Assembly: GCF_021531915.1 (NCBI RefSeq)
Contig: NZ_JAFBIV010000015.1
Coordinates: 1-52,081, forward strand
Source: Oscillibacter valericigenes
GTDB lineage: Bacteria; Bacillota; Clostridia; Oscillospirales; Oscillospiraceae
Length of the DNA: 52,081 nucleotides
Reading direction: 5' to 3'
In this document: positions 16,680 through 29,673 of the stretch, in pieces
How positions within the stretch are numbered: position 1 is the stretch's first letter
Layout: every line of letters begins with the position of its first letter
Made by a program: the position numbers and the translations under genes
Notes under the pieces: generated by a model
Told to the model about the DNA's origin: nothing
The model's input: the letters and a program-made list of their open reading frames with translations, nothing else
Database searches by the model: none

Positions 16680-16720
16680 CAAAAGCCGGGTGAAGGGAAT
16701 GTTCCCCTCACCCGGCTTTG
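16680..16720 (-). terminator. Terminator at the end of the phage-like cluster
   Basis: AAAGCCGGGTGA / TCACCCGGCTTT stem with further inner pairing, followed by TTTTGG on the minus strand, directly after the last tail gene. Confidence 0.9.
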
Positions 16721-16723
16721 TAT

Positions 16724-17296
16724 TCAGTCCTCCGGCGGCACCGCCAGCTGGAAGCTCTCCCAGGTATGCCCCGCCGCCTCCACGGCCGCCCAGGTATACC
16801 CGGCCCGTTCACATTCTTCCCAGGTCAGGTAGCGGAAATAGAACTCCACTTCCAGGTGGCAGGGCAGGATGTCCAGAATGATCTTCTCAATCTGGTCGAA
16901 CTCCGCCGGGACACCCGCCACCTCCGGAAAGAGGACCCGCAGCCTGCCGTCCCCCATCTCCACGGCCCGGGCCCGGATGCCGCAGCCCCGCAGGGTGCGG
17001 TCCATGGCGTCGGGCGTCAGGCTGTCGCCGTCGATCTGCAGCAGGGCCGCGATGGCCGCTCTGCGCTCCTCCGCCGTGGCGGCGGCGGGGCGCCGGGCGA
17101 ACAGCGCCTCCCGGCGGCGCAGGCCCTCGTCCTCGGCGGTGGCGGTCAGGGATTCCCGCTCCACGGTGTCCAGCTTTCCGCCGATGCCGTCAAACCCCGC
17201 TCCCAGGGCCGCCAGCTCCGCGCCGTTGATGGTCCCCCGGCTCAGGTCATAGACCCCCAGGGGCTCCAGAAGCGCCCGCAGATATGCTTCATACAT
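16724..17296 (-). CDS. Baseplate wedge protein, XkdU/gpI-like (DUF2313)
   Basis: 190 residues. Begins MYEAYLRALLEPLGVYDL, the usual start of XkdU/YmfQ tail proteins, which sit at the outer baseplate and hold the fibres. It is the last gene of the cluster. In PBSX and most myophages, fibre and lysis genes would follow, but here a terminator and spoVAF follow. The C-terminus has a repeated TW motif (LTWEECERAGYTWAAVE, HTWESF), a short repeat often seen at the ends of baseplate or fibre-attachment proteins in clostridial prophages. Confidence 0.85.
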   Translation of the reverse strand: MYEAYLRALLEPLGVYDLSRGTINGAELAALGAGFDGIGGKLDTVERESLTATAEDEGLRRREALFARRPAAATAEERRAAIAALLQIDGDSLTPDAMDRTLRGCGIRARAVEMGDGRLRVLFPEVAGVPAEFDQIEKIILDILPCHLEVEFYFRYLTWEECERAGYTWAAVEAAGHTWESFQLAVPPED

Positions 17297-17299
17297 GGC

Positions 17300-18358
17300 T
17301 CACGCCTCCATTTCCCTCACCGTCAGGGTCCCCAGCACCGGCAGCACGGTATCGTCGGCAGCCAGGTCCGCGGCGGGAGCGGAAAAGCGGTAGTTCTCCA
17401 CGCCCTCCAGGGCATAGAGCCGGCTCCCCAGCTCCGCCAGCCGCACCGGCCTGCCCAGGAGCCGTCCCGTGAAGAAGGTGGTGATGCTCTGCTCCGCGGC
17501 GGCCTTCACCCCGTCGAAGGTCCAGCCTTCTTTCTTCGCCACAGCCACTGTCACATCCACCGCCCGCACCGTGGGGGCCTTGACCTGCACGTCCACCGCG
17601 ATCTCCCGCTTGGCCTGCAGTTCCGCCGTCAGGGCGGTCAGCAGAGCTTCGGAGGGCAGGCCGCTCTCCGCCGCCACGTAGACGTCCACGGTGCCGATGC
17701 CCCGGGCCCGGCCCACGGCTCTGGCCGCCGCCACGCCGCTGACTCCCATGGCCGTCTGCTCATACCAAGCGGCGTTGGCGCCGTTGGGCAGCCTCTGATA
17801 GCTCTCCAGGATCCGGGCCCGGAAGGCCTCGTCCCCCTCGGCGTCGGCGCCGCCGTAAAAGGCGGCAGGGTTGGTGCAGCCGGTCACCGCCAGGGGACAA
17901 GCCGTCAGGATGCGGACAGTCCCCGGTGCCGCGTTGCCGTCAGCGCCGCCCTCCAGGGCCTCCGCCGGAGCGTCCGCCGTCAGGGTCCCCGCCGCCAGCA
18001 CCACCGTCTGGAGGGTCTGGAACCGGACCTCCCCGGCGGTCATGCACACGGTGCCCGCCGGGATGGTGATGTCCGACACCGGCGCCATCTCCACGGAAAA
18101 CCGCAGGGTCCCCACCGCCTTTGATGCCGGCTGCCGGGTCAGGCCCCGCATCTGCCCGTGGCGGTCCAGATAGACCCCCTGGGCTGTCTGGGGAAAGCTC
18201 TGGTCCAGCACCCAGTCCGCCTGGATATCCAGCGCCTGGAGCTGGGCCGCCGCGGCCCACAGCCGGACCGACAGGTCACAGCCCTCCTCCGGCGTGAACC
18301 CGGCCCGCTGGGCGAAGGCCTCCAGTAACTCCCCATAGATCGTTTCAATCTCTCTCAC
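17300..18358 (-). CDS. Baseplate J-like protein (XkdT/gpJ)
   Basis: 352 residues. The Baseplate_J core is recognisable (YLDRHGQMRGLTR, IPAGTVCMT, GADAEGDEAFRARIL, YEQTAMGVSGVAAARAV). It forms the wedge ring that joins the hub to the sheath start. Three bp separate it from the next gene and 12 bp from gp25. The presence of gpJ, gpI and gp25 shows that the contractile baseplate is genetically complete apart from fibres. Confidence 0.93.
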   Translation of the reverse strand: MREIETIYGELLEAFAQRAGFTPEEGCDLSVRLWAAAAQLQALDIQADWVLDQSFPQTAQGVYLDRHGQMRGLTRQPASKAVGTLRFSVEMAPVSDITIPAGTVCMTAGEVRFQTLQTVVLAAGTLTADAPAEALEGGADGNAAPGTVRILTACPLAVTGCTNPAAFYGGADAEGDEAFRARILESYQRLPNGANAAWYEQTAMGVSGVAAARAVGRARGIGTVDVYVAAESGLPSEALLTALTAELQAKREIAVDVQVKAPTVRAVDVTVAVAKKEGWTFDGVKAAAEQSITTFFTGRLLGRPVRLAELGSRLYALEGVENYRFSAPAADLAADDTVLPVLGTLTVREMEA

Positions 18359-18370
18359 TGTCGTCTCCTC

Positions 18371-18721
18371 TCATGCCCGCAGCTCCACCGTCACCGACAA
18401 CGGCGTTCCCTCATAGGACAGCTCCGCCGTCAGCGACGCGCTGCCCGCCTTCTGGAGCAGTGTCACCTGCTCCACCGACAAGCCGGGTTCCTCCTCCAGC
18501 GCCTCCGCCACGTACTGCCGTGCGGCGGCCTGCCGGGCGGAGGTCGGCAGCTGTCCCAGCTGCCACAGGCGGCTGCCCAGATCCTCCCGGAAGGGGAAGG
18601 CCCCCCGCTTGGCCGTCAGCCGGAACAGTACCCGCTGCAAAAGCGCCTCCTGCCCTCCCACACGACGGAGACCCGCCGCGCCGTCAGACACATAGTCGCC
18701 GTTCTGAAGCGCCAGTTCCAT
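18371..18721 (-). CDS. gp25-like baseplate wedge protein (XkdS, DUF2634 type)
   Basis: 116 residues. The conserved middle RGAFPFREDLGSRLWQLG matches the gp25/GPW_gp25 pattern in which this wedge protein seats the first sheath ring. Its ATG overlaps the stop of the spike gene by one base (TGATG), indicating translational coupling. Confidence 0.88.
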   Translation of the reverse strand: MELALQNGDYVSDGAAGLRRVGGQEALLQRVLFRLTAKRGAFPFREDLGSRLWQLGQLPTSARQAAARQYVAEALEEEPGLSVEQVTLLQKAGSASLTAELSYEGTPLSVTVELRA

Positions 18722-19119
18722 CAGACCACCTCCTGACCGCAGGTGCAGGGCTTGTAGAACTCACCGTTGATCACCAGCGTCCCCCGGATCTCCACCGTGC
18801 CGTCTTTCCGCAGATAGATGGAATTATCGCCCGGGCCATAAAGATAAACCTCCCCCGGCAGCATGCCCTTAGGGACAGTCCCCTGCCGCATCCCCGTTAC
18901 GCACTGCTCCTCGCCGCCGGGGCCGCCCTTGATGACCAGCACCGCCGCGCCGTTCTCCGGCTGCCATATATAGCCGCCGGGGCCGTACACCGGCAGCGCC
19001 CGCACCTCGCCCCGTGTCACCACGCCCACGCTGTCCCCGGCGATGGTGGTCATTCCCATGTCCGCGTCCGCCGTGGGCTGTTGGCCCCGCATCTGTCTGG
19101 AAAGCCACATCTCAACCAC
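18721..19119 (-). CDS. Baseplate spike / tail-tip protein (gpV/XkdR position)
   Basis: 132 residues. OB-fold-like N-terminal half (GDSVGVVTRGEVRALPVYGPGG) followed by a short beta-rich tail. It ends with PCTCGQEVV, a Cys-x-Cys that could bind metal at the tip, as some spike proteins do. The position between hub and gp25 matches the spike of contractile tails. It overlaps the hub gene's stop by 8 bp. The small size suggests a minimal spike without a cell-wall hydrolase domain. Confidence 0.75.
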   Translation of the reverse strand: MVEMWLSRQMRGQQPTADADMGMTTIAGDSVGVVTRGEVRALPVYGPGGYIWQPENGAAVLVIKGGPGGEEQCVTGMRQGTVPKGMLPGEVYLYGPGDNSIYLRKDGTVEIRGTLVINGEFYKPCTCGQEVV

Positions 19120-20059
19120 GCTCCTTCAATGTCAGTGTCGCCGTGTATCCGTCCCGGGCGGAATACACGTTTTCCGCCTCCTGCACCCGGAACTCCCCTG
19201 TCAGGCCCATGCGGTCCAGGGACAGGGACACCCAGTCCCCTGGGAAAGCCAGGAAGCTCCCCGGCAGGGTCACCGTCACCAGCTTCTCCTCCTCCCGGGA
19301 CTTCTCGATCTGGTATTGGCCGGTGTAGCGCATGGCGTCCCAGGTGCTCTGCCCGGGGGTGTAGACCACCCGGCGGCACTGGCCGCCCCGGGCGATCATC
19401 TCCGGGTTCTTCACCGAATAGGAGGTGTTCCGGGTCTTGTCGATGACCAGCGCCTCCGTCAGCACGCCGTAGTGGTCCTCTCGCAGGGAGCAGGCCAGCA
19501 CCGGGTCCGTCTCCCCGATGGTCAGCCGCTTCTTTGGCGCCCGCTCCGGCACCGCCAGCAGGGCGCCGTTGGTGGCAAAGCGGGGCAGGAAGCCCCCGTA
19601 GGTCCGGCAGAAATCCACCAGCGCCTTCCACTGGCTGCACCCCGCCGCCACGGTGTACACCGAGTCGGCCCGCACATCGGCGATCTCCCGGGTCACCACG
19701 CCGTAGGGCGTCACGTGGCAGCGGATGATCTCCGCCAGGGTGGCCGCCTGGTACGTCACCGGACGGCTCTCGTTGTCCAGCAGCCGTGCGGCGGCTCCCC
19801 GTCCGGTGATGGTGGCGGTGATCCCGCTGCTGCCCAGGTCCACCGTATACTCGTCCACGATGCCCCGGGACACGATCTGCCCCTTCTCCATACCCAGGAA
19901 GCCCGCCGCCAGCCGCAGCACCGGCGCCATCTCCTTCCGGTACAGGAAGGTGACGGAATAGCTGTCGCAGGGCACCCCGCCGGTGAGATTCACCCGCCAG
20001 CTCAGCAGCGGCGGCAGGTCGTAGACCTTGTGGTCACTGGTAAAGATCCGTCCTGTCAT
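19112..20059 (-). CDS. Baseplate hub protein (XkdQ/gp27-like)
   Basis: 315 residues from ATG at 20059 (MTGRIFTSDHKVYDLPPLLS). Hub marks are LSWRVNLTGGVPCDSYSV, a GRGAAARLLDNES segment and the closing beta domain GDWVSLSLDRMGLTGEFRVQEAEN. The start overlaps the stop of the LysM gene as ATGA, so the two are coupled. The longer in-frame extension to 20167 would lie inside the LysM gene. It forms the trimeric ring at the tube end that carries the spike. Confidence 0.87.
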   Translation of the reverse strand: MTGRIFTSDHKVYDLPPLLSWRVNLTGGVPCDSYSVTFLYRKEMAPVLRLAAGFLGMEKGQIVSRGIVDEYTVDLGSSGITATITGRGAAARLLDNESRPVTYQAATLAEIIRCHVTPYGVVTREIADVRADSVYTVAAGCSQWKALVDFCRTYGGFLPRFATNGALLAVPERAPKKRLTIGETDPVLACSLREDHYGVLTEALVIDKTRNTSYSVKNPEMIARGGQCRRVVYTPGQSTWDAMRYTGQYQIEKSREEEKLVTVTLPGSFLAFPGDWVSLSLDRMGLTGEFRVQEAENVYSARDGYTATLTLKERG

Positions 20060-20643
20060 GGGATCGTCACCCTGTCCCCCGGATAGATCAGATTGGGATT
20101 CTTGATCTGGGGATTGGCCGCGATCAGGGCCGTCAGGCTCACGCCGTGCCGCTTCGCGATGCCCCACAGGGTATCTCCTTTCTTCACCAGATACACCGCC
20201 GCCTCCGCCCCGGCGTCCGTACCGGCAGAGGATGTGTTTTCTCCCTGAGAAGGGCTCCCCACATCCACCTGGGTCAGGCCGCCGTCATAGCCGTTCCAGT
20301 CCTCCCAGAATTCGAACCGGTAGCGCACGTAGTCCGGCAGCGGCTCCTCCGTCACCGTCAGGGACGCGAACCAGGCCCGCTCCGTCTGCCAGACGGGATG
20401 GACCAACAGGCCCGAGCCTCCCTCCCGGAAGACCTCCGCCAGCTGCCGGAACTGCTCATAGGCATTCTCTCCGGCGAACACGCCCTCGCCCCGCAGCACC
20501 TGGTATCCGCTGCCCAGGTCCTGGATCACGCACCGCCCGAAGGGCACCGGATGGACCGCCAGCCTTCTCTGGCGCTCCACCACATAGACCTCCGGATTGT
20601 GGGGCCAGGTGTAGTCCTTGAATCGCATGGGCGTCAGCCGCAT
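20056..20643 (-). CDS. LysM baseplate protein (XkdP/gp53-like)
   Basis: About 195 residues. An N-terminal tail domain (EVYVVERQRRLAVHPVPFG, FEFWEDWNGYDG) is joined by a Ser/Gly linker to one C-terminal LysM motif (about 150-195, VKKGDTLWGIAKRHGVSLTAL). In contractile phages such proteins link the hub to the tape-measure end and wedges. I chose the ATG at 20643 (MRLTPMRFKD), 7 nt after GGAGG; the earlier ATG at 20649 lies right on the ribosome site. Confidence 0.87.
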   Translation of the reverse strand: MRLTPMRFKDYTWPHNPEVYVVERQRRLAVHPVPFGRCVIQDLGSGYQVLRGEGVFAGENAYEQFRQLAEVFREGGSGLLVHPVWQTERAWFASLTVTEEPLPDYVRYRFEFWEDWNGYDGGLTQVDVGSPSQGENTSSAGTDAGAEAAVYLVKKGDTLWGIAKRHGVSLTALIAANPQIKNPNLIYPGDRVTIP

Positions 20644-20657
20644 GCCCATTCCTCCCT

Positions 20658-21101
20658 TCAATAGATGGAAAAACCACCGTCATAGCGGCGGGCGTCCCGC
20701 TGGATGGCTCTGGACACCTCCCGGACGCCGCTCTCTCCCACAGCGGAGCTGCCTGCCGGCCACGTTCCGCCCCAGCCCGTGAAGCCGCTGTCCGGAGGCC
20801 ACACCGTCCCCCACTCTCCGGCGGCGTCCCGTGTCACAAGCTCCCGCCGTGTTTCTTGGGACGCCGCCGTGCCGGTCTGCCGTTCCTGCGCCCGGTATCC
20901 CCCCGCCGCAGGCACGGTCTCCTCCGCTCCGGCGGAGCGGGCCAGGTCACCTTCCGTCTCCATGGACCGGGCCGCACCCGCATACACCGCATTCTCCACG
21001 GTCCCGCCGTCTCCGGCCCGCGTCTCCTCCGTTTCGCCGCCCAGCAGCAGCGCCGTCAGGGCGTCCCGCTGCCGCCGCAGCAGCTCTCCCATGTAGTCCA
21101 A
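20658..21101 (-). CDS. Small protein in the tape-measure slot
   Basis: 147 residues, probably from TTG at 21101 (GGAGGG 6 nt upstream). It occupies the place where myophages encode a tape measure of many hundred residues, between the tail chaperone and the LysM protein. It is hydrophilic with low-complexity Gly/Ala/Glu/Thr stretches and one aromatic patch (WPPDSGFTGWGGTWPAG). The C-terminal helix is VREVSRAIQRDARRYDGGF. There is no long coiled coil, membrane segment or hydrolase motif. It may be a vestigial or miniature tape measure, or the second part of a two-frame chaperone. No homologous family is recognised. Confidence 0.6.
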   Translation of the reverse strand: MDYMGELLRRQRDALTALLLGGETEETRAGDGGTVENAVYAGAARSMETEGDLARSAGAEETVPAAGGYRAQERQTGTAASQETRRELVTRDAAGEWGTVWPPDSGFTGWGGTWPAGSSAVGESGVREVSRAIQRDARRYDGGFSIY

Positions 21102-21103
21102 GC

Positions 21104-21409
21104 CTATCCCTCCTTCAGCGCCAGAAACCGCTCCCGGTCAAAGGCGGGATTGTCCCCGGCGGTGGCCGGGGGCTCTCCCTCCGCCAGCTGCCGCAGGAGC
21201 AGTTCCATCTCCCGGGGCGTCAGGGTCTCCAGGACCTCCTCCCCGCTTCGGAACACCGCCCTGCCTTCGCAAAAGCAGCTCTCCGCCAGCACCCGGGCGT
21301 TGCAGAGGAGGGCCCGTTCTCCGGGCTCCTCCGCCGCCTCGCCGCTCTCCCGCCAGATGGCCAGCAGCCGTCCCGCCGTCAGCTGCCGCAGCTCGTCCAG
21401 TTCTCTCAT
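21104..21409 (-). CDS. Probable tail assembly chaperone (XkdN position)
   Basis: 101 residues, acidic and helical (LDELRQLTAGRLLAIWRES, TPREMELLLRQLAEG). It follows the tail-tube gene with an ATGA overlap, where chaperones of the gpG/XkdN type lie. No canonical slippery heptamer is visible before its stop, so a programmed frameshift into the next ORF is not supported, though the two ORFs almost touch. Confidence 0.65.
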   Translation of the reverse strand: MRELDELRQLTAGRLLAIWRESGEAAEEPGERALLCNARVLAESCFCEGRAVFRSGEEVLETLTPREMELLLRQLAEGEPPATAGDNPAFDRERFLALKEG

Positions 21410-21795
21410 GCCGTGGTCTCGATGCGCTTGGCGGCCACCACGGTGATCTTCTCCGCCACCATGGCGTTGAGCTTGCCCTCTTCCTCAATGGCGCTCCACT
21501 CACAGCCGCTGTAAATGATCTTCCGGTCCGGCTTGCAGATGACCAGGGAAAAATCCGTCAGGTCATAGAAATTGATGCCGTCGGAGATGGCGTCGTCGGT
21601 GGCATACAGCCGGGTCAGTTCCAGCACGTATTTCCGCTGTCCCGCGATGGTGGCCACCGGCTCGCTCTCGCCAAAGGCCTCCACGTTTTTGGAGGATTTG
21701 CTGGCCTTGGCGGTGTAGCTCTGCACCACCGCCACCTTTTTGCCCTCCAGCTCCAGATAGATGTCCGAGCTGGTGGGGAATCCCTTTACTTCCAT
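21406..21795 (-). CDS. Tail tube protein (XkdM-like)
   Basis: 129 residues. The family phrases are clear: LELEGKKVAVVQSYTAKASKSSK, VEAFGE, YVLELTRLYATDD, GINFYDLTDFSLVI. It forms the inner tube around which the sheath is built. It lies 23 bp after the sheath gene, as in PBSX and other contractile tails. Start ATG at 21795. Confidence 0.92.
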   Translation of the reverse strand: MEVKGFPTSSDIYLELEGKKVAVVQSYTAKASKSSKNVEAFGESEPVATIAGQRKYVLELTRLYATDDAISDGINFYDLTDFSLVICKPDRKIIYSGCEWSAIEEEGKLNAMVAEKITVVAAKRIETTA

Positions 21796-21818
21796 ATCCC
21801 GTTCCTTTCCCTACTCCG

Positions 21819-22880
21819 TCAAACGGTGATATGCACCGTCAGGTAGATCTGGTTGAGACCGTGGGCCACGGCAAAGCTGAACTCCACCAGACACACGGTG
21901 GGGTCCTCCTCCGATGCCGTCACCCGCACCTCGCCATAGCTGTCGATGATCTCGGCGGCCACCTTCTTCTCCAGCTCCACGATGACCTGGGACCGGATGG
22001 CACCCCGGCTGCGGGCCGTGTTCTTGGCTCTGGAGAAGCGGCTCCGCAGGGCGGAGCGCATGGTGGGGATGATGTCGTCCACGATGAGAATGGTGGTCAG
22101 TTCCCGCCAGGTGGTGTCCGCCGCGCCGCCGGTGGTGGTGCGGGTGGTGATGCCCCGCACGGAGGAGATGACTCCCGCCACGCTCTCCAGAGGCGTCACG
22201 CCGCCCCGCACCAGCAGGTCCACCTCGTTGTCGCCGTAATCCTCGGCAAGACCCCCCAGGCCGGACAGCTCCGCCCCGTTCAGGGGCACCGCCGGGTCCC
22301 CGCCGTCGGCCAGGACACCGGCCACCGCCGCGGCGGCAAAGGCGCCCGCCAGAGCGTTGCCGTTACTGTCCAGGGCGTCCGGCCCCACCAGGACCATCCG
22401 CTCGCTGTTCAGCTTGGCGGCCCGCTCCACCAGCTCCGCCGCCGTGTCGCCGTCGCCGCCCACCACGGCGATGCGCTCCCTGCGCTGGGCGGAGGCCGTT
22501 TCCACGGCAGTCCGCAAAGCCTGCTGCACCGCCGCGTCAGCGCTGTCGCAGACCACGATCTGCATTTCTTTTTTGCCCAGCGCGTCAAAGGCCGCCTGAT
22601 AGTCGCTGACCGCGCCCGTGTCCGCCACCCGGACGGCCACCACCGTGGCGGTGCCGTTGGCGAACAGCAGCCGCAGGATGGTGCTCATACCGGGAGTGGT
22701 GTCCTCGCCGAACACCGCCACGCCAGCCGCGTATCCGGTAATGGTCACCGCTTCCCCCACCGTGCCGCGGGCGGCCCTGGCCGCCACACCCACGGTCTTG
22801 CTGCCGCGTCCGGCGGTCACCACCGCCGACGCGTCGTAGGCCGAGTACACGCCCGGCCGCTCATGCCTGATCTCGCTCAA
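21819..22880 (-). CDS. Contractile tail sheath protein (XkdK-like)
   Basis: 353 residues, a short sheath near the minimal core size. Typical start (ERPGVYSAYDASA), central domain with VAVFGEDTTPGMSTILRLLF, and the conserved end where ITTRTTTGG, DDIIPTMRSALR and the strand RVTASEEDPTVCLVEFSFAVAHGLNQI form the sheath-tube and sheath-sheath contacts. Its presence defines the particle as contractile (myovirus-like). It begins with a 4-bp overlap with the neck gene. Confidence 0.95.
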   Translation of the reverse strand: MSEIRHERPGVYSAYDASAVVTAGRGSKTVGVAARAARGTVGEAVTITGYAAGVAVFGEDTTPGMSTILRLLFANGTATVVAVRVADTGAVSDYQAAFDALGKKEMQIVVCDSADAAVQQALRTAVETASAQRRERIAVVGGDGDTAAELVERAAKLNSERMVLVGPDALDSNGNALAGAFAAAAVAGVLADGGDPAVPLNGAELSGLGGLAEDYGDNEVDLLVRGGVTPLESVAGVISSVRGITTRTTTGGAADTTWRELTTILIVDDIIPTMRSALRSRFSRAKNTARSRGAIRSQVIVELEKKVAAEIIDSYGEVRVTASEEDPTVCLVEFSFAVAHGLNQIYLTVHITV

Positions 22881-23371
22881 TCCCGCATGACCCCTTTCAA
22901 AATAAAGTCCAGGAAGATCTCACCGTCCTCCTGGCTCTCCGCCACGAAAACGGCCTGACACCGCAAGCTGCCCCGCCGCAGGAACAGCCCCGTGGCCTTC
23001 TCCCATTTCAGAGCCTCCCACCGCAGCTCTCCCGGCCGGATGCCGCTGGGCAGTCCGCCCAGCAGCACCTCCGCCGCCTGCCTGCAGCCCGCCTCGCAGT
23101 CCGCCGCCCGGGGCCCCCGGATGTCCACGGTGATGTCCCCCTCCAGCTGCTTGCCGTAAAGCTCCCGCACGGTCCCGGCTGTCTCGTCATAGACCTCCCC
23201 CAGGTAGTTGCAAAAGCCCATGGCTTTGCCCTCGACGGCCCCCACGGCCACTGCCGCCACGGCGCCGCTGTAGTCCTTGGCAAAGCCCTCCGGGAAGGCC
23301 TCTACCGCCGTCAGCCCCGCTTCCCGCAGGGCCTTCAGCACCGCCTGCCGCACCTGTTCCAATTCCTTCAT
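22877..23371 (-). CDS. Neck / tail-completion protein (XkdJ position)
   Basis: About 164 residues from ATG at 23371 (MKELEQVRQAVLKALREAG), which overlaps the preceding stop as ATGA. Contains DITVDIRGPRAADCEAGCRQAAEVLLGGLPSGIRPGEL and ends with a beta-rich segment, GEIFLDFILKGV, typical of tail-terminator proteins that cap the sheath below the head. The assignment rests on position and general shape. Confidence 0.7.
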   Translation of the reverse strand: MKELEQVRQAVLKALREAGLTAVEAFPEGFAKDYSGAVAAVAVGAVEGKAMGFCNYLGEVYDETAGTVRELYGKQLEGDITVDIRGPRAADCEAGCRQAAEVLLGGLPSGIRPGELRWEALKWEKATGLFLRRGSLRCQAVFVAESQEDGEIFLDFILKGVMRD

Positions 23372-23688
23372 GTGGCCGCCTCCTTTGCCCGTTCCAGTGC
23401 CGCCCACCAATAGAGCTGGGTCTCACCCACAGACCAGGGGCGGCTGCTGCGGACCCGGTACGTCACACCATCCCAGGTCATCCGGTCCCCCGGCTCCACG
23501 GCCGTCTGCCCCAGATACAGCCACAGCCTGCCGTCCACGGCGCCAAGCCCCGTCATCTCCGACGGCACCTGCTCCTGACGACCTGTGACCGGCTGCAAAA
23601 AGGCCCGGACCGCCGCGTCTCCACCGGCCAGGTGGACCGTCACTTCCTGCCCGTACCGGCACAGGACCTCTTCGATCATCCGCTTCAT
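23368..23688 (-). CDS. Head-closure protein (XkdH/I position)
   Basis: 106 residues, a beta-barrel-like small protein (RLWLYLGQTAVEPGDRMTWDGVTYRVRSSRPWSVG). The TWDGVTYRVRSS phrase is common in clostridial prophage head-closure proteins. It overlaps both neighbours by 4 bp, giving a tightly coupled connector block. Confidence 0.72.
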   Translation of the reverse strand: MKRMIEEVLCRYGQEVTVHLAGGDAAVRAFLQPVTGRQEQVPSEMTGLGAVDGRLWLYLGQTAVEPGDRMTWDGVTYRVRSSRPWSVGETQLYWWAALERAKEAAT

Positions 23689-24047
23689 CCCCGCACTCCC
23701 TGAAAGGCAAAGTCCGTCTCCGCCGCGTAGGGTGCCATGAGCCGCTCCGCCGTCTGCCGCAGGGCGCCAGCCACCTCCGCCGCGTCAGCCCCGTCCCGGC
23801 CCTTCACGGAGATCTCCCCCGCCTTAAACTCCCTTACGCCGCCAGAGCGACTCACCATAAAGTCCGCCGCGGCGGTAAAAGCCGCCGCGCAGCAAAAGAC
23901 CGTTCCGCACGTTCCGGTGGTCATGCCTTCCCGCAGCCGTGCGGTCCAGACCGTTTCCGCCGCGGCGCACAGGGGCTTCAGCAGCGCCCGGTCCTCCTCA
24001 CCGGCACCGGCCACCGCCATAGCCAGCGCCAGGATCTGTTCCCCCAT
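23685..24047 (-). CDS. Head-tail connector (gp6-like position)
   Basis: About 120 residues from ATG at 24047, which follows GGAGGG; the open frame to 24086 has no ribosome site. All-helical, with a central AAAFTAAADFMVSRSGGVREFKAGEISVKGRDG segment. The KAGEISVKGRD part resembles the end of adaptor proteins that dock on the portal. Function inferred mainly from position after the capsid gene. Confidence 0.68.
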   Translation of the reverse strand: MGEQILALAMAVAGAGEEDRALLKPLCAAAETVWTARLREGMTTGTCGTVFCCAAAFTAAADFMVSRSGGVREFKAGEISVKGRDGADAAEVAGALRQTAERLMAPYAAETDFAFQGVRG

Positions 24048-24101
24048 CCGTCTTCCCTCCTTGTCAGTTATCCAAAGGGACGGCATTCCGCCGTCCCTGC
24101 C

Positions 24102-25133
24102 TTACACCGTCAGGACCTTGGAAGCGTCCTGGAACAGCTTGGCAAAGCCGGAGATGGAGGTGATGGCGGCCCGCTCCAGCTGGCGGTCGATGAGTTTGTC
24201 GTACTCCACGGTCACCTCGCTGCCGCAGATCTGCTCCAGGGCGTAGTTCTTGTCCAGGCCGATGAGTTTGCCGCTGCCCAGGGCGCTGGTGCGCAGCAGC
24301 TTGGCGCCCTGGGGCGTGGTCAGGGTGCCGGTACCCTGGAAGTTCAGGCCGGTCAGGGGATTCTGGAACTCAGGCAGCTTCAGCATGGCCAGCATCATGT
24401 CGTTGCTCACCAGCAGGGTGTTCATGGTGTAGGGGTCAAACTGGCTCCAGAAATCCAGCAGCGCATCGTAGCTCAGAGTCCCGGCAGTGCCGGAAATGGG
24501 GCTGGTGCCCACCTTGAAGGTATCGGCGGCGTTGTCGTTGCCGTCGCCGTCGCAAAGGACCTTGATGGCGTCCTCCAGATGCATTCTGCCGATGTAGGCG
24601 CCGATCTGGCGCAGGGTCACGGAGAACAGGTCCAGCCGCTGGAAGCGGATGGCCTCGTAGGAAGCCACCAGCATGCGGCCACGCTTGTGCAGACGCACCA
24701 GGTTCTCCTGGGTGCGGACGGTGGTCTGGGGGATGGCAGCGCCCTCCTCCACCCGCAGCAGCTTCTTGTCGGCCTCGGTGGGCACGGAGGCGATGGAACG
24801 GTAGTCCATGCCGTCAAAGCGGGTCACGGTGGCGGTGATGTCGGACAGGATGCTCTCCTCCTCCATGCCCTGGCGCACCACGCGGGATACGAACTCAGGG
24901 AACAGCACGGCAGACTCACTGGTGTGGAAGAACTTCTCCACCATGTCGCTGCCGGCACCCTTGACCTTGATGTCGAAGCGCTTCAGCTGGCGCTGGAAGG
25001 CGTCCAGGCCCTCCAGGGCCGTGCCGCTGTAGTGCTCGCTGGGGTCCAGCTCCTCCAGGGTCTGGCTGAAGGTGTGGCCGCTGCGGCCGTACATACCCTT
25101 TTCCAGCTTCACGTTTTCAAAATGATAAGCCAT
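24102..25133 (-). CDS. Major capsid protein
   Basis: 343 residues. It lies between the decoration and connector genes. The pattern of an N-terminal arm (MAYHFENVKLEKGMYG), a long helix region and the core phrases FPEFVSRVVRQGMEEESILSDI, EAIRFQRLDLFSVTLRQIG and SNDMMLAMLKLPEFQNPLTG fits an HK97-fold shell protein of clostridial siphophages and myophages. The sequence is intact, without frameshift. Several hundred copies would form the icosahedral head. Confidence 0.9.
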   Translation of the reverse strand: MAYHFENVKLEKGMYGRSGHTFSQTLEELDPSEHYSGTALEGLDAFQRQLKRFDIKVKGAGSDMVEKFFHTSESAVLFPEFVSRVVRQGMEEESILSDITATVTRFDGMDYRSIASVPTEADKKLLRVEEGAAIPQTTVRTQENLVRLHKRGRMLVASYEAIRFQRLDLFSVTLRQIGAYIGRMHLEDAIKVLCDGDGNDNAADTFKVGTSPISGTAGTLSYDALLDFWSQFDPYTMNTLLVSNDMMLAMLKLPEFQNPLTGLNFQGTGTLTTPQGAKLLRTSALGSGKLIGLDKNYALEQICGSEVTVEYDKLIDRQLERAAITSISGFAKLFQDASKVLTV

Positions 25134-25147
25134 CTCGTCTCTCCTCC

Positions 25148-25495
25148 TTACAGTACAAAAGTGACCAGCTTGCCGGTGGTGTCCACATCCACCACCAGGC
25201 AGGCGCGGCCGTTGGTGTCGGCCTTCACGCCGCCGGTGCCGTTGGCGGAAAGGCCGCTCCAGCCCAGAACGGGTGTGGTGCCGGTGTAAGGCACCTCCAC
25301 CATGCCGCCAAGGATCACGGCGCAGGCAGTGCCGTCACGGCCCACCACATCCACAACACCGGCAAAGGCGTTGCCGTCTGCGCAGGCGCTCACCGTGCCG
25401 TTGGCACTGACCTTCACCACTTTGCCCTCGGCCACGCCGCTGCCGCAGGCAAAGGTGGCGCTCCACTGGCCGATGCCCTCAAAAGAATGCTTCAT
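25148..25495 (-). CDS. Probable capsid decoration protein
   Basis: 115 residues, beta-rich and low in charge (GVAEGKVVKVSANGTVSACADGNAFAGVVDVVGRDG). It sits just before the major capsid gene, the usual place of head-decoration or stabilisation proteins (DUF2190-like or lambda gpD-like). It is not part of the basic PBSX gene set as I know it. Assignment by composition, size and position. Confidence 0.65.
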   Translation of the reverse strand: MKHSFEGIGQWSATFACGSGVAEGKVVKVSANGTVSACADGNAFAGVVDVVGRDGTACAVILGGMVEVPYTGTTPVLGWSGLSANGTGGVKADTNGRACLVVDVDTTGKLVTFVL

Positions 25496-25525
25496 ATCCT
25501 TCCTCCTTCTATGTTGTTGTCCCCA

Positions 25526-26368
25526 TCAGACAAGGAACACCGTTTCATCGCCCCGCTCCTCCACGCACTTTCTGCGCAGCTGGGGCGCCGCAGGGAAGCG
25601 CCGGGCTGCCTGGACCTCGTAGCCGCGCTTCAGTTCCAGCAGCTCCGGCTCCTCCAGCCGGTCCATGGCCTTGCCCAGCACGCTGCCGTCCAGGCCGTCA
25701 TCCGCCAGCATGGCAAGGCGCACCACCTCTTTCCGCAGTTCCTGCAGGTACTTTCGGCCCAGGGCGGCCTGCTTCCGCAGCAGCGCCGCCTCGCCGCCCT
25801 CCTGGCCGAAGCGCTTCACCACGCCGGCCTCCCGCTGGGCGGGCACTGCCACGAAGGACCACTCGTAGGCGTCCACAGGCTCCCGCAGCTCCGTAAAGCA
25901 CAGCCGGTCTCCGTACATCTGGCCCCGCACGTGCTGGCAGCAGCCCTCCTCGGCGCCGCAGACGGAGCACACCCGCTTCGCCACGCTGCAGCCCACACTG
26001 ACTTCTTTCTTGATGCCGCCCTCGATCTCCGCGATCAGGTCGGCGTTCTTCTCGGTCCGCAGCAGATAGGCCCAGCCCTTGAGCCAGCAGTAGCCGTCTC
26101 CCGCGGTGGTCACTCTGGCCGCCTCCCGCACCACCTCCGTGCGGTAGATGCGGGCCGTCTGGCCCCTGGCGGACCACTGGTGGTCAAAGATGCCGCTTTT
26201 GCCCAGGAACAGCTCTCCCAGCCGTTCCAGCGCCGCCGTGTCGAACCGCTCAAAATCCCGGTCCACCTCGTTGTCGCACAGTCGCACGCTGAACACGTAG
26301 ACCTGCTCCTCCGTCAGCGCCGTTCTGGCAAACTGATTGATGTACGCCAGTTCCTCCCGGATGTCCAT
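25526..26368 (-). CDS. Prohead protease / scaffold-type protein (XkdF position)
   Basis: 280 residues. N-terminal protease-like half: FSVRLCDNEVDRDFERFDTAALERLGELFLGKSGIFDHQWSARG, then KKEVSVGC and DAYEWSFVAVPAQREAGV, similar to herpesvirus/HK97-type prohead proteases. The C-terminal third is helical and charged, like a fused scaffold. An insert with CSVCGAEEGCCQHVRG (four Cys, one His) looks like a small zinc knuckle. The likely catalytic His is in FDHQW and the Ser in EVSVG; this is inference. Confidence 0.75.
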   Translation of the reverse strand: MDIREELAYINQFARTALTEEQVYVFSVRLCDNEVDRDFERFDTAALERLGELFLGKSGIFDHQWSARGQTARIYRTEVVREAARVTTAGDGYCWLKGWAYLLRTEKNADLIAEIEGGIKKEVSVGCSVAKRVCSVCGAEEGCCQHVRGQMYGDRLCFTELREPVDAYEWSFVAVPAQREAGVVKRFGQEGGEAALLRKQAALGRKYLQELRKEVVRLAMLADDGLDGSVLGKAMDRLEEPELLELKRGYEVQAARRFPAAPQLRRKCVEERGDETVFLV

Positions 26369-26425
26369 GCAATTCCTCCTTCGTTGTCAAAAAGTCCGCT
26401 TCCAATGGCAGAAGCCAGGGTTTTC

Positions 26426-27598
26426 TCACTGTTTCCGCTCCCGCTCATCATTCTCAATTCTCAGCTTCCTGGCCTGTTCCCGATAGAGCTCCGCCCTGGC
26501 TTCTTCCACCTGGTCCTGCAGGTTGATGTCGTCCCAGACCACCTCAAACCCGCAGGTGAAGCCGTGCATCCGCAGCCAGAGCCGGCAGATGCGCTCCACC
26601 ACCGGCGTCAGCGTCCTGCGGATGGCCGTGATCTCCGTGGTCAGCAGGTCCGCCTGCTGGCTGCTCATCCGCTCCGTGGAGCTCCAGTTCAGCCCCAGCA
26701 TAAAAGGCGGGATGCCGGTCTTGGCCACGATCTGCTCCAGGATCTGCCGCACCGGCACCTGGCTGTCCAGAATGGGCGCGTCGCCGCCGATGACCCGGAT
26801 GTTCACGTCACCCACGGCCACAAAATCCCGCACGCTGCCGTTTCGGGTCTCCTGCATGGCCCTGGACCACTCCTCCGCCAGCACCCGGCTGCGCTCCGCC
26901 GCGCTGACGCCCTCGCCGTCCCCGCAGGTAACGGCAAAGCGCACGTTGCCGCAGCGCTCCCAGTTGACGCCGATGGTGTGATAAATTTTCAGCAGAATGT
27001 CCGACAGGAAGGGCAGAGACCGCAGCAGGGACACACCGTAGGGATTCTCCGTCTCCGGGTTCAGGGGCGTAAACAGCAGCAGATCCTGATAGGGCAGCTG
27101 TCCCATCCTGCCGTGTTCGTCCGCGCCACAGATGGCAAATTCCAGAGGGCTGTTTCCCTCTTTGATCTCGATGTTCTCCACCCGGCCGCACAGCAGGGCC
27201 GCGATCTCCCGGTTCCCCACCGCCGGTACGATCTCGCCCACGGCCCGGCCGCAGGTCAGAAGGGAATCCAGATAGCACTCCAAAAAGGCGTTGATGCCGA
27301 ACTGTCCCCGTCCGATGGGCACGGTCCGCAAGAACTCCCGCAGCGCCTTCTCGGCAGTCCGGTCCCCGCAGGCCACCGTCACGCCGCCCGTCATCCGGAC
27401 CAGCTTGTAGATGGCCGCGTCCACCACCGGCACCGCCTCCCGCACGGACCGATAGAGCTGCACCTCACCGTTCCGCAGGGGCACATACTCCCGCAGCATC
27501 CCAAAGGGATGGGTCTCGCCGCCCCGCAGCTGTACCACCGCCGTGGGGACTTCTCCCCGCTTTTTCAACCACTTTCCCACCATATCCTCCCTTTCCAT
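26426..27598 (-). CDS. Phage portal protein (XkdE position)
   Basis: 390 residues. Portal features: VREAVPVVDAAIYKLVRM near the start, the stem/wing phrase NPYGVSLLRSLPFLSDILLKIYHTIG, and PPFMLGLNWSSTERMSSQQADLLTTEITAIRRTLTPVVERICRLWLR before a charged C-terminal crown. A ring of 12 subunits would form the DNA entry vertex. Intact. Between it and the protease is a 57-bp gap; between it and the terminase, 27 bp. Confidence 0.92.
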   Translation of the reverse strand: MEREDMVGKWLKKRGEVPTAVVQLRGGETHPFGMLREYVPLRNGEVQLYRSVREAVPVVDAAIYKLVRMTGGVTVACGDRTAEKALREFLRTVPIGRGQFGINAFLECYLDSLLTCGRAVGEIVPAVGNREIAALLCGRVENIEIKEGNSPLEFAICGADEHGRMGQLPYQDLLLFTPLNPETENPYGVSLLRSLPFLSDILLKIYHTIGVNWERCGNVRFAVTCGDGEGVSAAERSRVLAEEWSRAMQETRNGSVRDFVAVGDVNIRVIGGDAPILDSQVPVRQILEQIVAKTGIPPFMLGLNWSSTERMSSQQADLLTTEITAIRRTLTPVVERICRLWLRMHGFTCGFEVVWDDINLQDQVEEARAELYREQARKLRIENDERERKQ

Positions 27599-27625
27599 CG
27601 CAGTTTTCGTTCCATTGCCGCTATC

Positions 27626-28874
27626 TCATGGACGCCGTTCCACCGTCACCGCCGCGAACCCGCCGCTCTCCTTCTCCGCCAGGTCCATGGCGAAATATCG
27701 CATCTCGTCCATGGCATGATCGTGTTCCTTCCGGGGCGCGTCTCTGCCGCCCCGCTCGTCCCAGCAGTACAACGCCATTTCCCGCAGGCAGTCCCCGCAG
27801 CTCCGGCAGATTTGGATTTTCCCAGCCCGCAGCAGGTCCGCCGTCACCCGGATACCGTCCGCCACCGCGTTGTCGGCCCGGATGACCCGAAAGCCCCGCC
27901 GCCGCAGCACCTCAATGAAGCTGGCGGCGGAGGGGTCCACGATGACCCGGGCGATCCGCCGTCCTGCCGCCAATTTCTCCAGATCATCGGCGTACTCCGC
28001 GTCGGTCCGCTGGCGCCCCGCCTTGTGGGAGTCGTAATAGTACTCCTCCGTCCGGTACCAGACGCCCTCCTTCCTGCCCCAGAGGCCGAAGGACGCCGGG
28101 TTGGAGGTCCCGTAGTCCACGGAAATGCGCCCACTGGTCAAAGGGTCCCTCCGGCGCTTCCACAGCGTCCCGCTCCCGGTCAAAGAAGTCGTAGACCAGT
28201 CCCTGGGCCGCCGTCCACTCCCCCAGCACAAACCGGCGGTAGAATACGCCCGAGTAGGCCCGCTCATACCTTGCCCGGATGCGGGGCGTCAGGGAGGGAT
28301 TGTCCGCCATGGTGAACCGCAGCCGCAGGGCCTTCCGCTCCCCGGCCTTCAGGATCCACTCCTGATAAAACCAGTGCTGAGGCCCCTCCGGGTTGCAGTT
28401 GAACCACAGTCGGCTCCCCGGCACGCTGCACCGGGCGATGGCCTGCTCCACAAAGGACCGGGGCATCAGCGCCGTCTCGTCCATGAGGATACCCGCCAGT
28501 GTGCTTCCTTGGATCAGGGCCGCACTGGACTCATCCCGGCCGCCGAACAGCAAAAAGCGGTTCTCCCGGCCGCCGTACCGCACGATCAGCAGATTTTCCG
28601 ACCGCCGCTCCCGGACGGTCATTCCCATCCTTCTCAGGCAGGGGATCAGTTCCGCCAGCAGGTTACGCCGCAGAGACCCGATGGTCTTGCCGCACAGACC
28701 GAACTGCTTCCCCTGAAAGCACCCCTGCGCCCACAGGAAGAAGGACAGGCCCATGGCAAAGGTCTTGCCGCTGCGCACGGCTCCGTCGCAGATGATGGCC
28801 TCCCAGTCTCCCCGCTGCCACCAGGTCAACACCCGCATCTGCTTCCGGGAGAAGTGCATGCCCTCAATCGTCAC
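27626..28874 (-). pseudogene. Terminase large subunit with a single-base frameshift
   Basis: Two frames together cover a full terminase of about 415 residues. Frame one (GTG start at 28874) holds the ATPase: Walker A GAVRSGKT at 31-38, Walker B GILMDE at 128-133. Frame two holds the RNase-H-like nuclease: RISVDYGTSNPASFGLWG, VIVDPSAASF, and DHAMDEMRYFAMD at the end. At the GGG of 28130-28132 (CCC on plus), dropping one G gives FDQWRISVDYGT, the expected junction. As written, the motor would lose its nuclease. It may be a true inactivation or a sequencing error; the G-run indel resembles the one at 7217. Confidence 0.85.
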
Positions 28875-29325
28875 CCCAGCCGCCCTCCATCTGCCCGGCG
28901 GCGTCCTCCAGGGCCCGGTACAGTTCCTCCGCCCCGCCGCTGCCGCCGCTCTCCAGCAGGCCGCACAGGGTCTCCAGGGCCCGGACCCGGTCCACCAGCT
29001 TCACTTCCACGCCCTTGTCCGTCACCTTGAACTCCGCCACGGCGGAAAGGTCCAGAGTGTCCACATCCGCGCTTTCCGGGTGCAGAGCCAGCCCCAGCAC
29101 ATCGTTGGCCCGCCCGAAGGCCAACTGGGCCAGCCGCCGGACGGCGTCCTCCCGGCGGATCTGCGCCGCCGCATCCGTCCGCATCTTCTCCAGCTTGGCC
29201 TGGGTCCGCTGCTGTCCCAGCAGGGTAAAGCCGTCCAGCCGGCCCACCGCCTCCGCCGCCCGTTCCGGGTCCATGGTCCGGAGATAAGTCCGACAGAAGA
29301 CCCCGTCCTCTTTTCTCTTGTCCAT
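28864..29325 (-). CDS. Terminase small subunit (XtmA-like)
   Basis: 153 residues from ATG at 29325 (MDKRKEDGVFCRTYLR) after GGGAGG. The family phrases EDAVRRLAQLAFGRANDV and FKVTDKGVEVKLVDRVRALETLCGLL are present. The N-terminal DNA-binding helix-turn-helix appears shortened relative to PBSX XtmA. It is the first gene of the cluster, overlaps the large subunit by 11 bp, and has no obvious promoter in the 100 bp upstream. Confidence 0.9.
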   Translation of the reverse strand: MDKRKEDGVFCRTYLRTMDPERAAEAVGRLDGFTLLGQQRTQAKLEKMRTDAAAQIRREDAVRRLAQLAFGRANDVLGLALHPESADVDTLDLSAVAEFKVTDKGVEVKLVDRVRALETLCGLLESGGSGGAEELYRALEDAAGQMEGGWGDD

Positions 29326-29448
29326 ATCCGCTCGCCTCCCGTCTCCGCTCACACAGTACGTCTCTCCCCGCCGCTCTCTTGCACGCCGCCGTGCATCACT
29401 CCGCATTTTTCCGCTGGAAATCAAAAAAATTTTCCCGTTCCACGCATA

Positions 29449-29480
29449 AAAGAAGACCAGCGCCTCATCAGCGCCGGTCT
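29449..29480 (-). terminator. Terminator upstream of the phage-like cluster
   Basis: AGACCAGCGC / GCGCCGGTCT stem (29454-29463 with 29471-29480, one mismatch), then TTCTTTTAT on the minus strand. It insulates the terminase genes from upstream minus-strand transcription. Confidence 0.7.
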
Positions 29481-29673
29481 CCGAACTCCGTTCTTATCTG
29501 CGGCCCTCAAACCGTCTTTTCCATATACTGCCGAAGCAACGCTGCCATACTCACCACCGCCGCGATGATTCTCTTGGCGTTACCGGTCAGGAGCGGGAAC
29601 GCCTTCGTTCAGCCGCTGACAATTACTTTCTGTCCTCTGTGAAATCCCCGTCAACATTTTTAGCGCCACATTA

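What the first reader, a model, noticed from the sequence alone, without database searches (positions are those of the whole stretch)
16724..29325. Stripped-down, resident contractile phage-like particle locus
Seen: an unbroken minus-strand run with terminase, portal, protease, decoration, capsid, three connector proteins, sheath, tube, chaperone, LysM baseplate protein, hub, spike, gp25, gpJ and gpI. There is no integrase, repressor, antirepressor, replication, fibre, holin or endolysin gene, and no att-like repeat was noticed. Base composition and ribosome sites match the host, and terminators fence both ends. Known: PBSX of Bacillus has this gene order but keeps tape measure, fibres and lysis genes. 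Inference: a domesticated particle (gene-transfer-agent-like, tail-like bacteriocin or another host use) whose release would have to use lysis genes elsewhere, or natural mother-cell lysis at sporulation.
Basis: partly seen in the sequence, partly recalled or inferred. Interest (0 to 1): 0.85.

Follow-up and report, generated by a model that had tools for sequence, protein, structure and literature searches.

The report
Scattered short-tailed gene-transfer particle system
This gut bacterium carries one copy of a phage-derived gene cluster, shared by many related species, for a predicted DNA-packing head with a very short contractile tail; its likely fibre and lysis genes sit elsewhere in the genome behind the same DNA motif, so the cell likely makes particles that would carry its own DNA to neighbours.

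Summary
The cluster at 16724-29325 is real but not unique: a portal model found exactly one copy in each of 100 of 395 near-complete genomes of the order, over 52 of 173 genera, and 53 of 53 long enough loci keep the gene order. It is under purifying selection. Distances follow rpoB between genera, less so within the genus. Between tube and LysM genes 59 loci have only 486-1541 nt, too short for a usual tape measure; one family lacks the sheath. 'No fibre or lysis genes' holds for the window scans, not the genome: a palindrome upstream of terS (29379-29395) recurs upstream of a fibre-like gene and of an operon with an XhlA-like gene and a small holin-position gene on other contigs. Fibre-like genes found by protein search carry it (20 of 26; 3 of 179 control windows). 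Best reading: a vertically inherited, gene-transfer-agent-like particle with a stub contractile tail, run as a scattered regulon. Packaging and transfer are untested. The window's large terminase has a frame change that 72 of 72 relatives lack.

The parts
28864..29325 (-). terS, terminase small subunit (153 aa from the ATG at 29325)
   Evidence: Terminase_2 5.5e-05, just below its cut-off, on the longer 186-aa ORF; PHROG terS 6.5e-06; 64 orthologues
27984..28874 (-). terL, N-terminal ATPase part (first frame)
   Evidence: Terminase_6N 1.3e-13; TIGR01547 PBSX family, 125 bits over cut-off 105
27626..28267 (-). terL, C-terminal nuclease part (second frame); frame change near 28125
   Evidence: Terminase_6C 7.6e-06; 72 of 72 relatives read as one frame
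26426..27598 (-). portal
   Evidence: phrog_30703 portal 4.6e-195
25526..26368 (-). head maturation or scaffold protein; 'protease' rests on position only
   Evidence: phrog_16951, unknown function, 5.2e-124; 79 orthologues
25148..25495 (-). decoration-like head protein
   Evidence: phrog_4588 virion structural protein 6.6e-33
24102..25133 (-). major capsid protein
   Evidence: Phage_capsid_4 1.6e-16; phrog_3922 1.3e-118
23685..24086 (-). connector 1 (by position)
   Evidence: no family match; hits in relatives
23368..23688 (-). connector 2 (by position)
   Evidence: Phage_attach 0.0065, weak
22877..23410 (-). connector 3 (by position)
   Evidence: phrog_25177, unknown function, 1.4e-55
21819..22880 (-). 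tail sheath, 353 aa
   Evidence: Phage_sheath_1 7.2e-14, Phage_sheath_1C 2e-12; one match in the genome
21406..21795 (-). tail tube (by position)
   Evidence: phrog_27038, unknown function, 1.2e-65
21104..21409 (-). assembly-chaperone position protein
   Evidence: no family match; hits in part of the relatives
20658..21101 (-). miniature tape-measure-position protein (147 aa)
   Evidence: no family match; position; an RD-RRYD end in 14 of 15 relatives' ORFs printed, but the pick of ORFs favoured that end
20056..20661 (-). LysM baseplate protein
   Evidence: LysM 5.9e-17, DNA_circ_N 1.5e-07
19112..20167 (-). baseplate hub (start codon uncertain)
   Evidence: phrog_177 baseplate hub 9.8e-35
18721..19119 (-). 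spike (by position)
   Evidence: phrog_25991, unknown function, 6.1e-40
18371..18721 (-). gp25-like baseplate wedge or sheath initiator
   Evidence: GPW_gp25 0.00016, below its cut-off; phrog_120 3.5e-08
17300..18358 (-). baseplate J
   Evidence: Baseplate_J 1.4e-52
16724..17296 (-). gpI-like tail protein
   Evidence: Phage_Mu_Gp48 3.1e-05, below its cut-off; phrog_521 5e-19
29379..29395 (-). palindromic motif TGCACGGCGGCGTGCAA, about 54 nt upstream of terS
   Evidence: one match in the window, none in 100 shuffles; within 30-200 nt of terS in 31 of 35 relatives at up to 3 of 12 mismatches (reversed pattern 2 of 35), 16 of 35 at up to 1 (reversed 0)
29452..29482 (-). terminator-like hairpin upstream of the motif
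16682..16719 (-). terminator-like hairpin directly after gpI
   Evidence: 17-pair stem

Best explanation
The cluster at 16724-29325 is the core of what is likely a host-owned, gene-transfer-agent-like particle system, whose predicted product is a DNA-filled head on a stub-length contractile tail and whose likely fibre and lysis genes lie elsewhere in the same genome behind the same palindromic motif. Shown by sequence: one copy per genome with a match over many genera, kept gene order, purifying selection, a short tape-measure slot in the relatives read, and the palindrome upstream of core, fibre-like and lysis-type genes. Inferred: a common regulator binds the palindrome and switches these genes on together in some cells. 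TerS and TerL would then fill heads with host DNA, the XhlA-like and holin-position proteins with an endolysin not found here would open the cell, and particles would attach to neighbours through the fibre-like proteins and inject. In the window's own copy the terL frame change would block packaging unless it is an error of sequencing or assembly, or a rare variant.
For: Single copy in 44 of 61 genomes of the genus and in 100 of 395 genomes of the order, 52 of 173 genera. Gene order kept in 53 of 53 loci long enough; 39 of them with a hit for all 17 genes sought. TerL one frame in 72 of 72; 415-aa TerL, 96-100% identical over 84% of the query, in five other records. Purifying selection, window copy about as constrained as the rest of the genus. 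Terminase plus portal distances track rpoB: Spearman 0.82 over 27 genomes, 0 of 2000 permutations. Palindrome: 35 sites in 20 genomes, 2 for the reversed pattern (my count); in this genome it precedes p144, p159, an XhlA-like gene (phrog_937, 8.2e-12) and a 66-aa holin-position gene and, with one mismatch, a fibre-like gene also found by protein search and similar to the gene directly after gpI in other families (E 3e-12). 20 of 26 fibre-like genes carry it within 260 nt (up to 2 of 12 mismatches), 3 of 179 control windows do. Portal and fibre-like genes co-occur in the genus: 38/6/4/13, Fisher p 6e-06. Parallels in print: CcGTA accessory genes spread over the genome and co-activated, a palindrome in the cluster promoter (PMC11150451, abstract and passages); FpGTA in two operons (PMC12946183, section 9).
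Against: No call shows particles, packaged DNA or transfer. The window's terL is split. No endolysin was found in this genome (0 matches with one CHAP query). No database names the fibre-like or the 66-aa protein: 'fibre-like' rests on position after gpI in relatives and on resemblance (recalled), 'holin' on position. Seven of 31 near-complete genomes of the genus lack the portal. Within the genus agreement with rpoB is weak (0.22; 0.40, 73 of 2000 permutations) and well-supported conflicts exist. The window's TerS keeps three predicted N-terminal helices, unlike RcGTA's. Eleven of the 35 palindrome sites have no assigned gene of this kind (my tally over). The regulator is unknown.
Confidence: 0.6

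Rival explanations
1. A PBSX-like killer particle: it packages host DNA but does not deliver it, and kills relatives that lack the element.
For: Terminase of the PBSX family and a PBSX-like gene order (recalled); fibre-like genes in 1-10 copies per genome where found would suit strain-specific killing.
Against: Terminase, portal and capsid are kept and among the best conserved proteins, which killing alone need not demand; the tail would be far shorter than PBSX's (recalled).
Confidence: 0.2
2. Remnants of an ancient prophage slowly decaying in the lineage, with no present function.
For: Split terL in the window copy; portal missing in 7 of 31 near-complete genomes of the genus; no lysis gene next to the core here.
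Against: One open terL frame in 72 of 72 relatives; purifying selection with the window copy not clearly relaxed; a conserved motif shared with unlinked genes.
Confidence: 0.08
3. Another host use of the particle, for example in sporulation or cell-surface remodelling, without DNA transfer.
For: spoVAF lies 119 nt downstream here and within 4 kb in 4 of 36 places; a gene that I read as polysaccharide deacetylase follows gpI in 5 of 36.
Against: Neighbours change between species while core and motif stay. No sporulation promoter was tested for.
Confidence: 0.1

Closest known systems
FpGTA of Faecalibacterium (PMC12946183)
   Same: Compact head and packaging operon plus a second operon elsewhere with baseplate, fibre, RBP, holin and endolysin genes; gut Clostridia; no replication genes (as the paper says).
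   Different: Called most likely podovirus-like, no tail seen; here sheath, tube and baseplate genes sit in the core. Sequence homology was not tested because its proteins are not held here.
PBSX of Bacillus subtilis
   Same: Terminase family and the order of head, sheath, tube, LysM, gp25, gpJ and gpI genes (order recalled); packaging of 13.4-kb host fragments is reported for PBSX in PMC12946183 (passage).
   Different: PBSX keeps a long tape measure, and fibre and lysis genes next to the core (recalled); here the tape slot is 147 aa and those genes are scattered.
RcGTA and CcGTA of Alphaproteobacteria
   Same: Core cluster with accessory genes spread over the genome; for CcGTA a palindrome in the core promoter (PMC11150451, passages).
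   Different: Siphovirus-like tails (recalled); RcGTA small terminase without N-terminal DNA-binding domain (PMC6854486, passages), not clearly so here.
Longer phage-type records with the same head module (L168, 21 kb read of a 55-kb IMG/VR contig; L185, MT835508.1, 46.7 kb)
   Same: Homologous terL, portal, head and capsid proteins; L168 also sheath and tube.
   Different: Long records with many further ORFs; in L185 only terminase, head and connector genes match, and it holds a 1037-aa ORF.

Membership tests
Gene transfer agent | Phage-type head, packaging and tail genes in one conserved cluster | tested here: met
Gene transfer agent | Vertical inheritance, one copy, no integrase or replication module | tested here: inconclusive
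   One copy in 100 of 100 genomes with a match; rpoB agreement 0.82 overall but 0.40 within the genus; no integrase named in the 31 window ORFs scanned, not all ORFs
Gene transfer agent | Purifying selection on the cluster | tested here: met
   dS is saturated and GC-biased, so the values are rough
Gene transfer agent | Accessory fibre and lysis genes elsewhere under joint control | tested here: inconclusive
   Shared palindrome met by sequence; no binding or expression shown; gene roles partly by position; no endolysin
Gene transfer agent | Small terminase without N-terminal DNA-binding domain | tested here: inconclusive
   At most 115 aa in 13 of 64 relatives even as the longest ORF; the window's keeps predicted N-terminal helices; fold search gave no match with E up to 0.001
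Gene transfer agent | Packages mainly random host DNA and transfers it | not testable with these tools
   needs particles
Tailocin (tail without head) | No head or packaging genes | tested here: not met
   terminase, portal and capsid present
PBSX-type element | Long tape measure, and fibre and lysis genes beside the core (recalled) | tested here: not met
   147-aa ORF in the tape slot; terminator-like hairpin directly after gpI
FpGTA | Sequence homology to FpGTA I and II | not tested
   Its sequences are not held; a recalled 16S probe matched 0 of 42 genomes, all 42 with the portal

The most novel reading that the evidence does not exclude
An order-wide family of gene transfer agents with contractile tails worn down step by step (full core, no sheath, baseplate close to the head), run by one palindromic operator as a regulon scattered over the chromosome, and the so far unnamed source of the Oscillospiraceae DNA found in gut virus-like particles.
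Probability: 0.35. Interest if true: 0.9.

Novelty: new variant of a known kind. Interest (0 to 1): 0.78.

Why it matters
A 2026 study saw short, seemingly random fragments of Oscillospiraceae (Onthomonas) DNA in gut virus-like particles, but of four genomes searched named a strong operon candidate only in one Faecalibacterium genome (PMC12946183). This cluster is a candidate for such activity in the family; whether Onthomonas has it was not tested. It occurs in named genomes such as Oscillibacter valericigenes Sjm18-20 (L066; terL in one frame). If true, one motif lets the scattered parts list be read from a genome, and gene exchange among abundant gut bacteria becomes testable.

Tried and rejected
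LexA-like boxes (GAAC-N4-GTTC) in the 300 nt upstream of terS: none printed in 36 sequences. Pfam holin PF05105 and XhlA PF10779 in the own genome: 0 matches each; the XhlA-like gene was found only through the palindrome. PADLOC: no match for 4 proteins. Small-terminase fold search: no match with E up to 0.001; a small terminase (PaP3) is among weak ones with E above 1. A pac-site reading of the palindrome was dropped because it also precedes fibre-like and lysis-type genes. Palindrome-like sites of the own genome at C60 (AT-rich surroundings, no gene of this kind), C3 (a gene that I read as polysaccharide deacetylase) and C11:205858 (no gene assigned) were set aside. With up to 2 mismatches palindrome and control are equal in the own genome (48 against 47). 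My first rpoB set took antisense ORFs and was replaced; three of the 30 genomes dropped out: two without a readable rpoB motif, one (G287) without a terL match. In one search five of 31 fibre-like loci had no readable start and were dropped, and matches without a stored locus were not examined; four of the 26 counted (L408-L411) had been found through the palindrome, and without them the counts are 8 and 16 of 22. An earlier count gave '59' palindrome hits; the table sums to 49 hits, 35 distinct sites. Searches of print; no paper in their listings (one search listed 10 of 39, 10 of 14) is about this element by title and abstract start; the library lacks most subscription papers.
Full report
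Observation. The window is contig C6 of a 2.49-Mb genome in 63 contigs, 97.7% complete. The minus-strand run at 16724-29325 holds the genes listed under parts. Firm names are terminase, portal, capsid, sheath, LysM, hub and baseplate J; several others rest on position. Terminator-like hairpins lie at both ends. GC is higher than in the flanks (66.9% against 60.7% and 61.8%). Of ten flanking ORFs scanned six match host-type families (EamA, 4Fe-4S, GAPDH, lyase, GH18 with LysM, 2-hydroxyacid dehydrogenase) and four match nothing.

The terminase. terL lies in two frames with the change near 28125. In 72 of 72 relatives with both halves it is one open frame. Five listed records hold a 415-aa protein 96-100% identical over 84% of the query; one record from a 1,246-base contig (P0122) has the window's 296-aa form. 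The change may be a rare real variant or an error; I cannot tell.

Distribution. The portal gave one match in each of 44 of 61 genomes of the genus, own genome included, and in 4 of 38 of other families. A portal alignment gave exactly one match in each of 100 of 395 near-complete genomes of the order, in 52 of 173 genera. A scan of public genomes confirmed 143 relatives, of which 80 were kept; their titles name Oscillibacter, Dysosmobacter, Intestinimonas, Flavonifractor and others, or unnamed Oscillospiraceae, Clostridia and Bacillota. IMG/VR gave 73 loci, 19 of them on contigs of 12-16 kb, about the cluster's length. Six phage-collection records carry a related portal, two of them over 40 kb. 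One of these (46.7 kb) and a 55-kb IMG/VR contig carry further related head genes, so the head module also occurs in longer phage-type records.

Inheritance and selection. In 53 of 53 loci with enough DNA the genes found lie in the same order; 14 of the 53 lack a hit for one or more of 17 genes, mostly the decoration gene or connectors, and L099 also for sheath and tube (one search's printout was cut in the middle). L101 has lost much of the core. A KdpD-like kinase gene lies divergently within 3.5 kb of terL in 12 of 32 loci, spoVAF within 4 kb downstream in 4 of 36 places, and hflX directly downstream in 4 of 8 loci of family f23. NG86 dN/dS medians are lowest for tube, capsid and terL (0.23-0.30) and higher for connectors (0.6-0.8); dS is saturated, so values are rough. 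The window's pN/pS is close to the genus median for 12 genes, higher for hub (0.50 against 0.40) and tube (0.25 against 0.20). Terminase plus portal distances follow rpoB (Spearman 0.82, 27 genomes; 0.73 in the family, 25; 0.40 in the genus, 10, 73 of 2000 permutations), with 11 of 24 splits shared and nine pairs of conflicting splits with support of 0.9 or more.

Anatomy of the tail. The stretch between tube and LysM hits is 486-1541 nt in 59 of 59 loci with both, and 337-1152 nt in seven further loci of families f26 and f1. The ORF picked for the tape-measure slot was 136-304 aa in 56 of 57 cases; one pick of 64 aa looks wrong and the picking favoured a common C-terminal end. At about 0.15 nm per residue (recalled) 147 aa would give a tail near 20 nm. 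In family f23, 0 of 8 loci had a sheath match; in f26, 6 of 12 had one. Loci of f26 and f14 without a sheath have further long ORFs (856-1213 aa) that I did not identify, so the short slot is claimed only for the loci counted here. In at least seven f23 and f26 loci a gene of about 150-180 aa follows gpI directly.

Lysis genes. XhlA-like, small holin-position, holin or CHAP genes, or one that I read as M15-type, lie within 2 kb after gpI in 8 of 36 places. CHAP is Pfam 1.8e-07; XhlA-like proteins match phrog_937 hemolysin and the L298 holin phrog_199. In the window gpI is followed by a terminator-like hairpin. The CHAP query had no match in the own genome.

The operator. Upstream regions of terS share a palindrome: 16, 24 and 31 of 35 relatives at up to 1, 2 and 3 of 12 mismatches, the reversed pattern 0, 0 and 2. 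The pattern TGYAYGNNNNCRTGCAA gave 35 distinct sites in 20 genomes of the genus against 2 for the reversed pattern; 6 of the 20 had none. By my tally over lie at or inside the core, 9 near fibre-like genes (one about 0.7 kb off), 3 near lysis-type genes (one about 0.7 kb off), 3 at a 25-28-aa peptide gene, 2 at DUF6291 genes, and 11 are unassigned. In the window it occurs once.

The own genome. Besides the core, the pattern lies at C5:51553, 87 nt before the start of an operon p144, p159, XhlA-like, 66-aa holin-position gene, then a hairpin with a T run; at C5:16234 by the short peptide gene; and at C15:5344 by a DUF6291 gene (Pfam 4.1e-14). With one mismatch it lies at C11:18292, about 90 nt before a 149-aa fibre-like gene that a protein alignment search found as well (E 1.8e-17), and at C11:205858 with no gene assigned. 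The fibre-like protein resembles the protein directly after gpI in f23 and f26 loci (best E 3e-12); no family library names either. A second fibre-like gene lies at the very start of contig C34, so its upstream region is not held.

Independent test. Fibre-like genes were sought by protein (alignment A2) in 99 genomes: 42 of 61 in the genus, 0 of 38 outside. Of 31 stored loci 26 had a readable start; 12 have the palindrome with up to 1 mismatch and 20 with up to 2 within 260 nt; the reversed pattern gives 0 and 1; 179 other windows give 0 and 3. Without the four seeds the counts are 8 and 16 of 22. Portal and fibre-like genes co-occur (38 both, 6 portal only, 4 fibre only, 13 neither; p 6e-06; near-complete genomes alone 22/2/2/5, p 0.002). 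Incomplete assemblies can inflate the first figure.

Known systems. I read sections 9, 10, 26 and 28 and passages of PMC12946183: FpGTA has a 10.5-kb operon and a 5.5-kb operon with baseplate, fibre, RBP, holin and endolysin; GTA-like packaging was also seen in Onthomonas and Ruminococcus callidus; of four MAGs searched, Onthomonas among them, one Faecalibacterium MAG held a strong operon candidate. PMC11150451 (abstract, passages) reports scattered accessory genes and a palindrome in the CcGTA promoter. PMC6854486 (passages) reports a small terminase without the N-terminal DNA-binding domain. Homology to FpGTA was not tested. A portal of family f26 finds proteins named from Ruminococcus.

Verdict. 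A vertically inherited particle system with the logic of a gene transfer agent is the best reading (0.6). Packaging and transfer are inferred. It is filed as a new variant of a known kind, not as a proven member.

Noticed in passing
G000:C5:16234 (L359), G043:C1:12923 (L366), G014:C2:348613 (L370): A 25-28-aa peptide gene (common part GDVDDLI-QD-W--SDR) with a ribosome site stands behind the same palindrome in three genomes and is followed by a GC-rich hairpin with a T run.
   Followed up: partly
G000:C15:5344 (L361), G023:C103:5321 (L369): DUF6291 genes stand behind the palindrome in two genomes; a candidate regulator, untested.
   Followed up: partly
window 29500-29640, minus strand: Apparent remnant, by my reading, of a membrane protein gene of about 195 aa that lies between the KdpD-like kinase and terS in about 15 upstream regions of relatives.
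   Followed up: partly
L228, L290, L291, L293: In family f23 the sheath-less element is followed by hflX in 4 of 8 loci, a fixed host neighbour across genera.
   Followed up: partly
G031:C66:54147 (the same contig as L062 by its length): In one genome a further palindrome lies inside the core, downstream of the portal and, by L062's map, before the decoration gene; perhaps an internal promoter.
   Followed up: no
L383 and L361: Runs of hexamers of the kind ACAGGT and ATAGGA next to two palindrome sites of the own genome.
   Followed up: no
window 33428-34708: A glycosyl hydrolase 18 gene with two LysM stretches, the kind found in spore germination enzymes (that link is recalled).
   Followed up: no
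P0299, P0313, P0347: Portal relatives are named serine/threonine protein phosphatase in public records of Ruminococcus and an Oscillospiraceae MAG, probably a misannotation.
   Followed up: no
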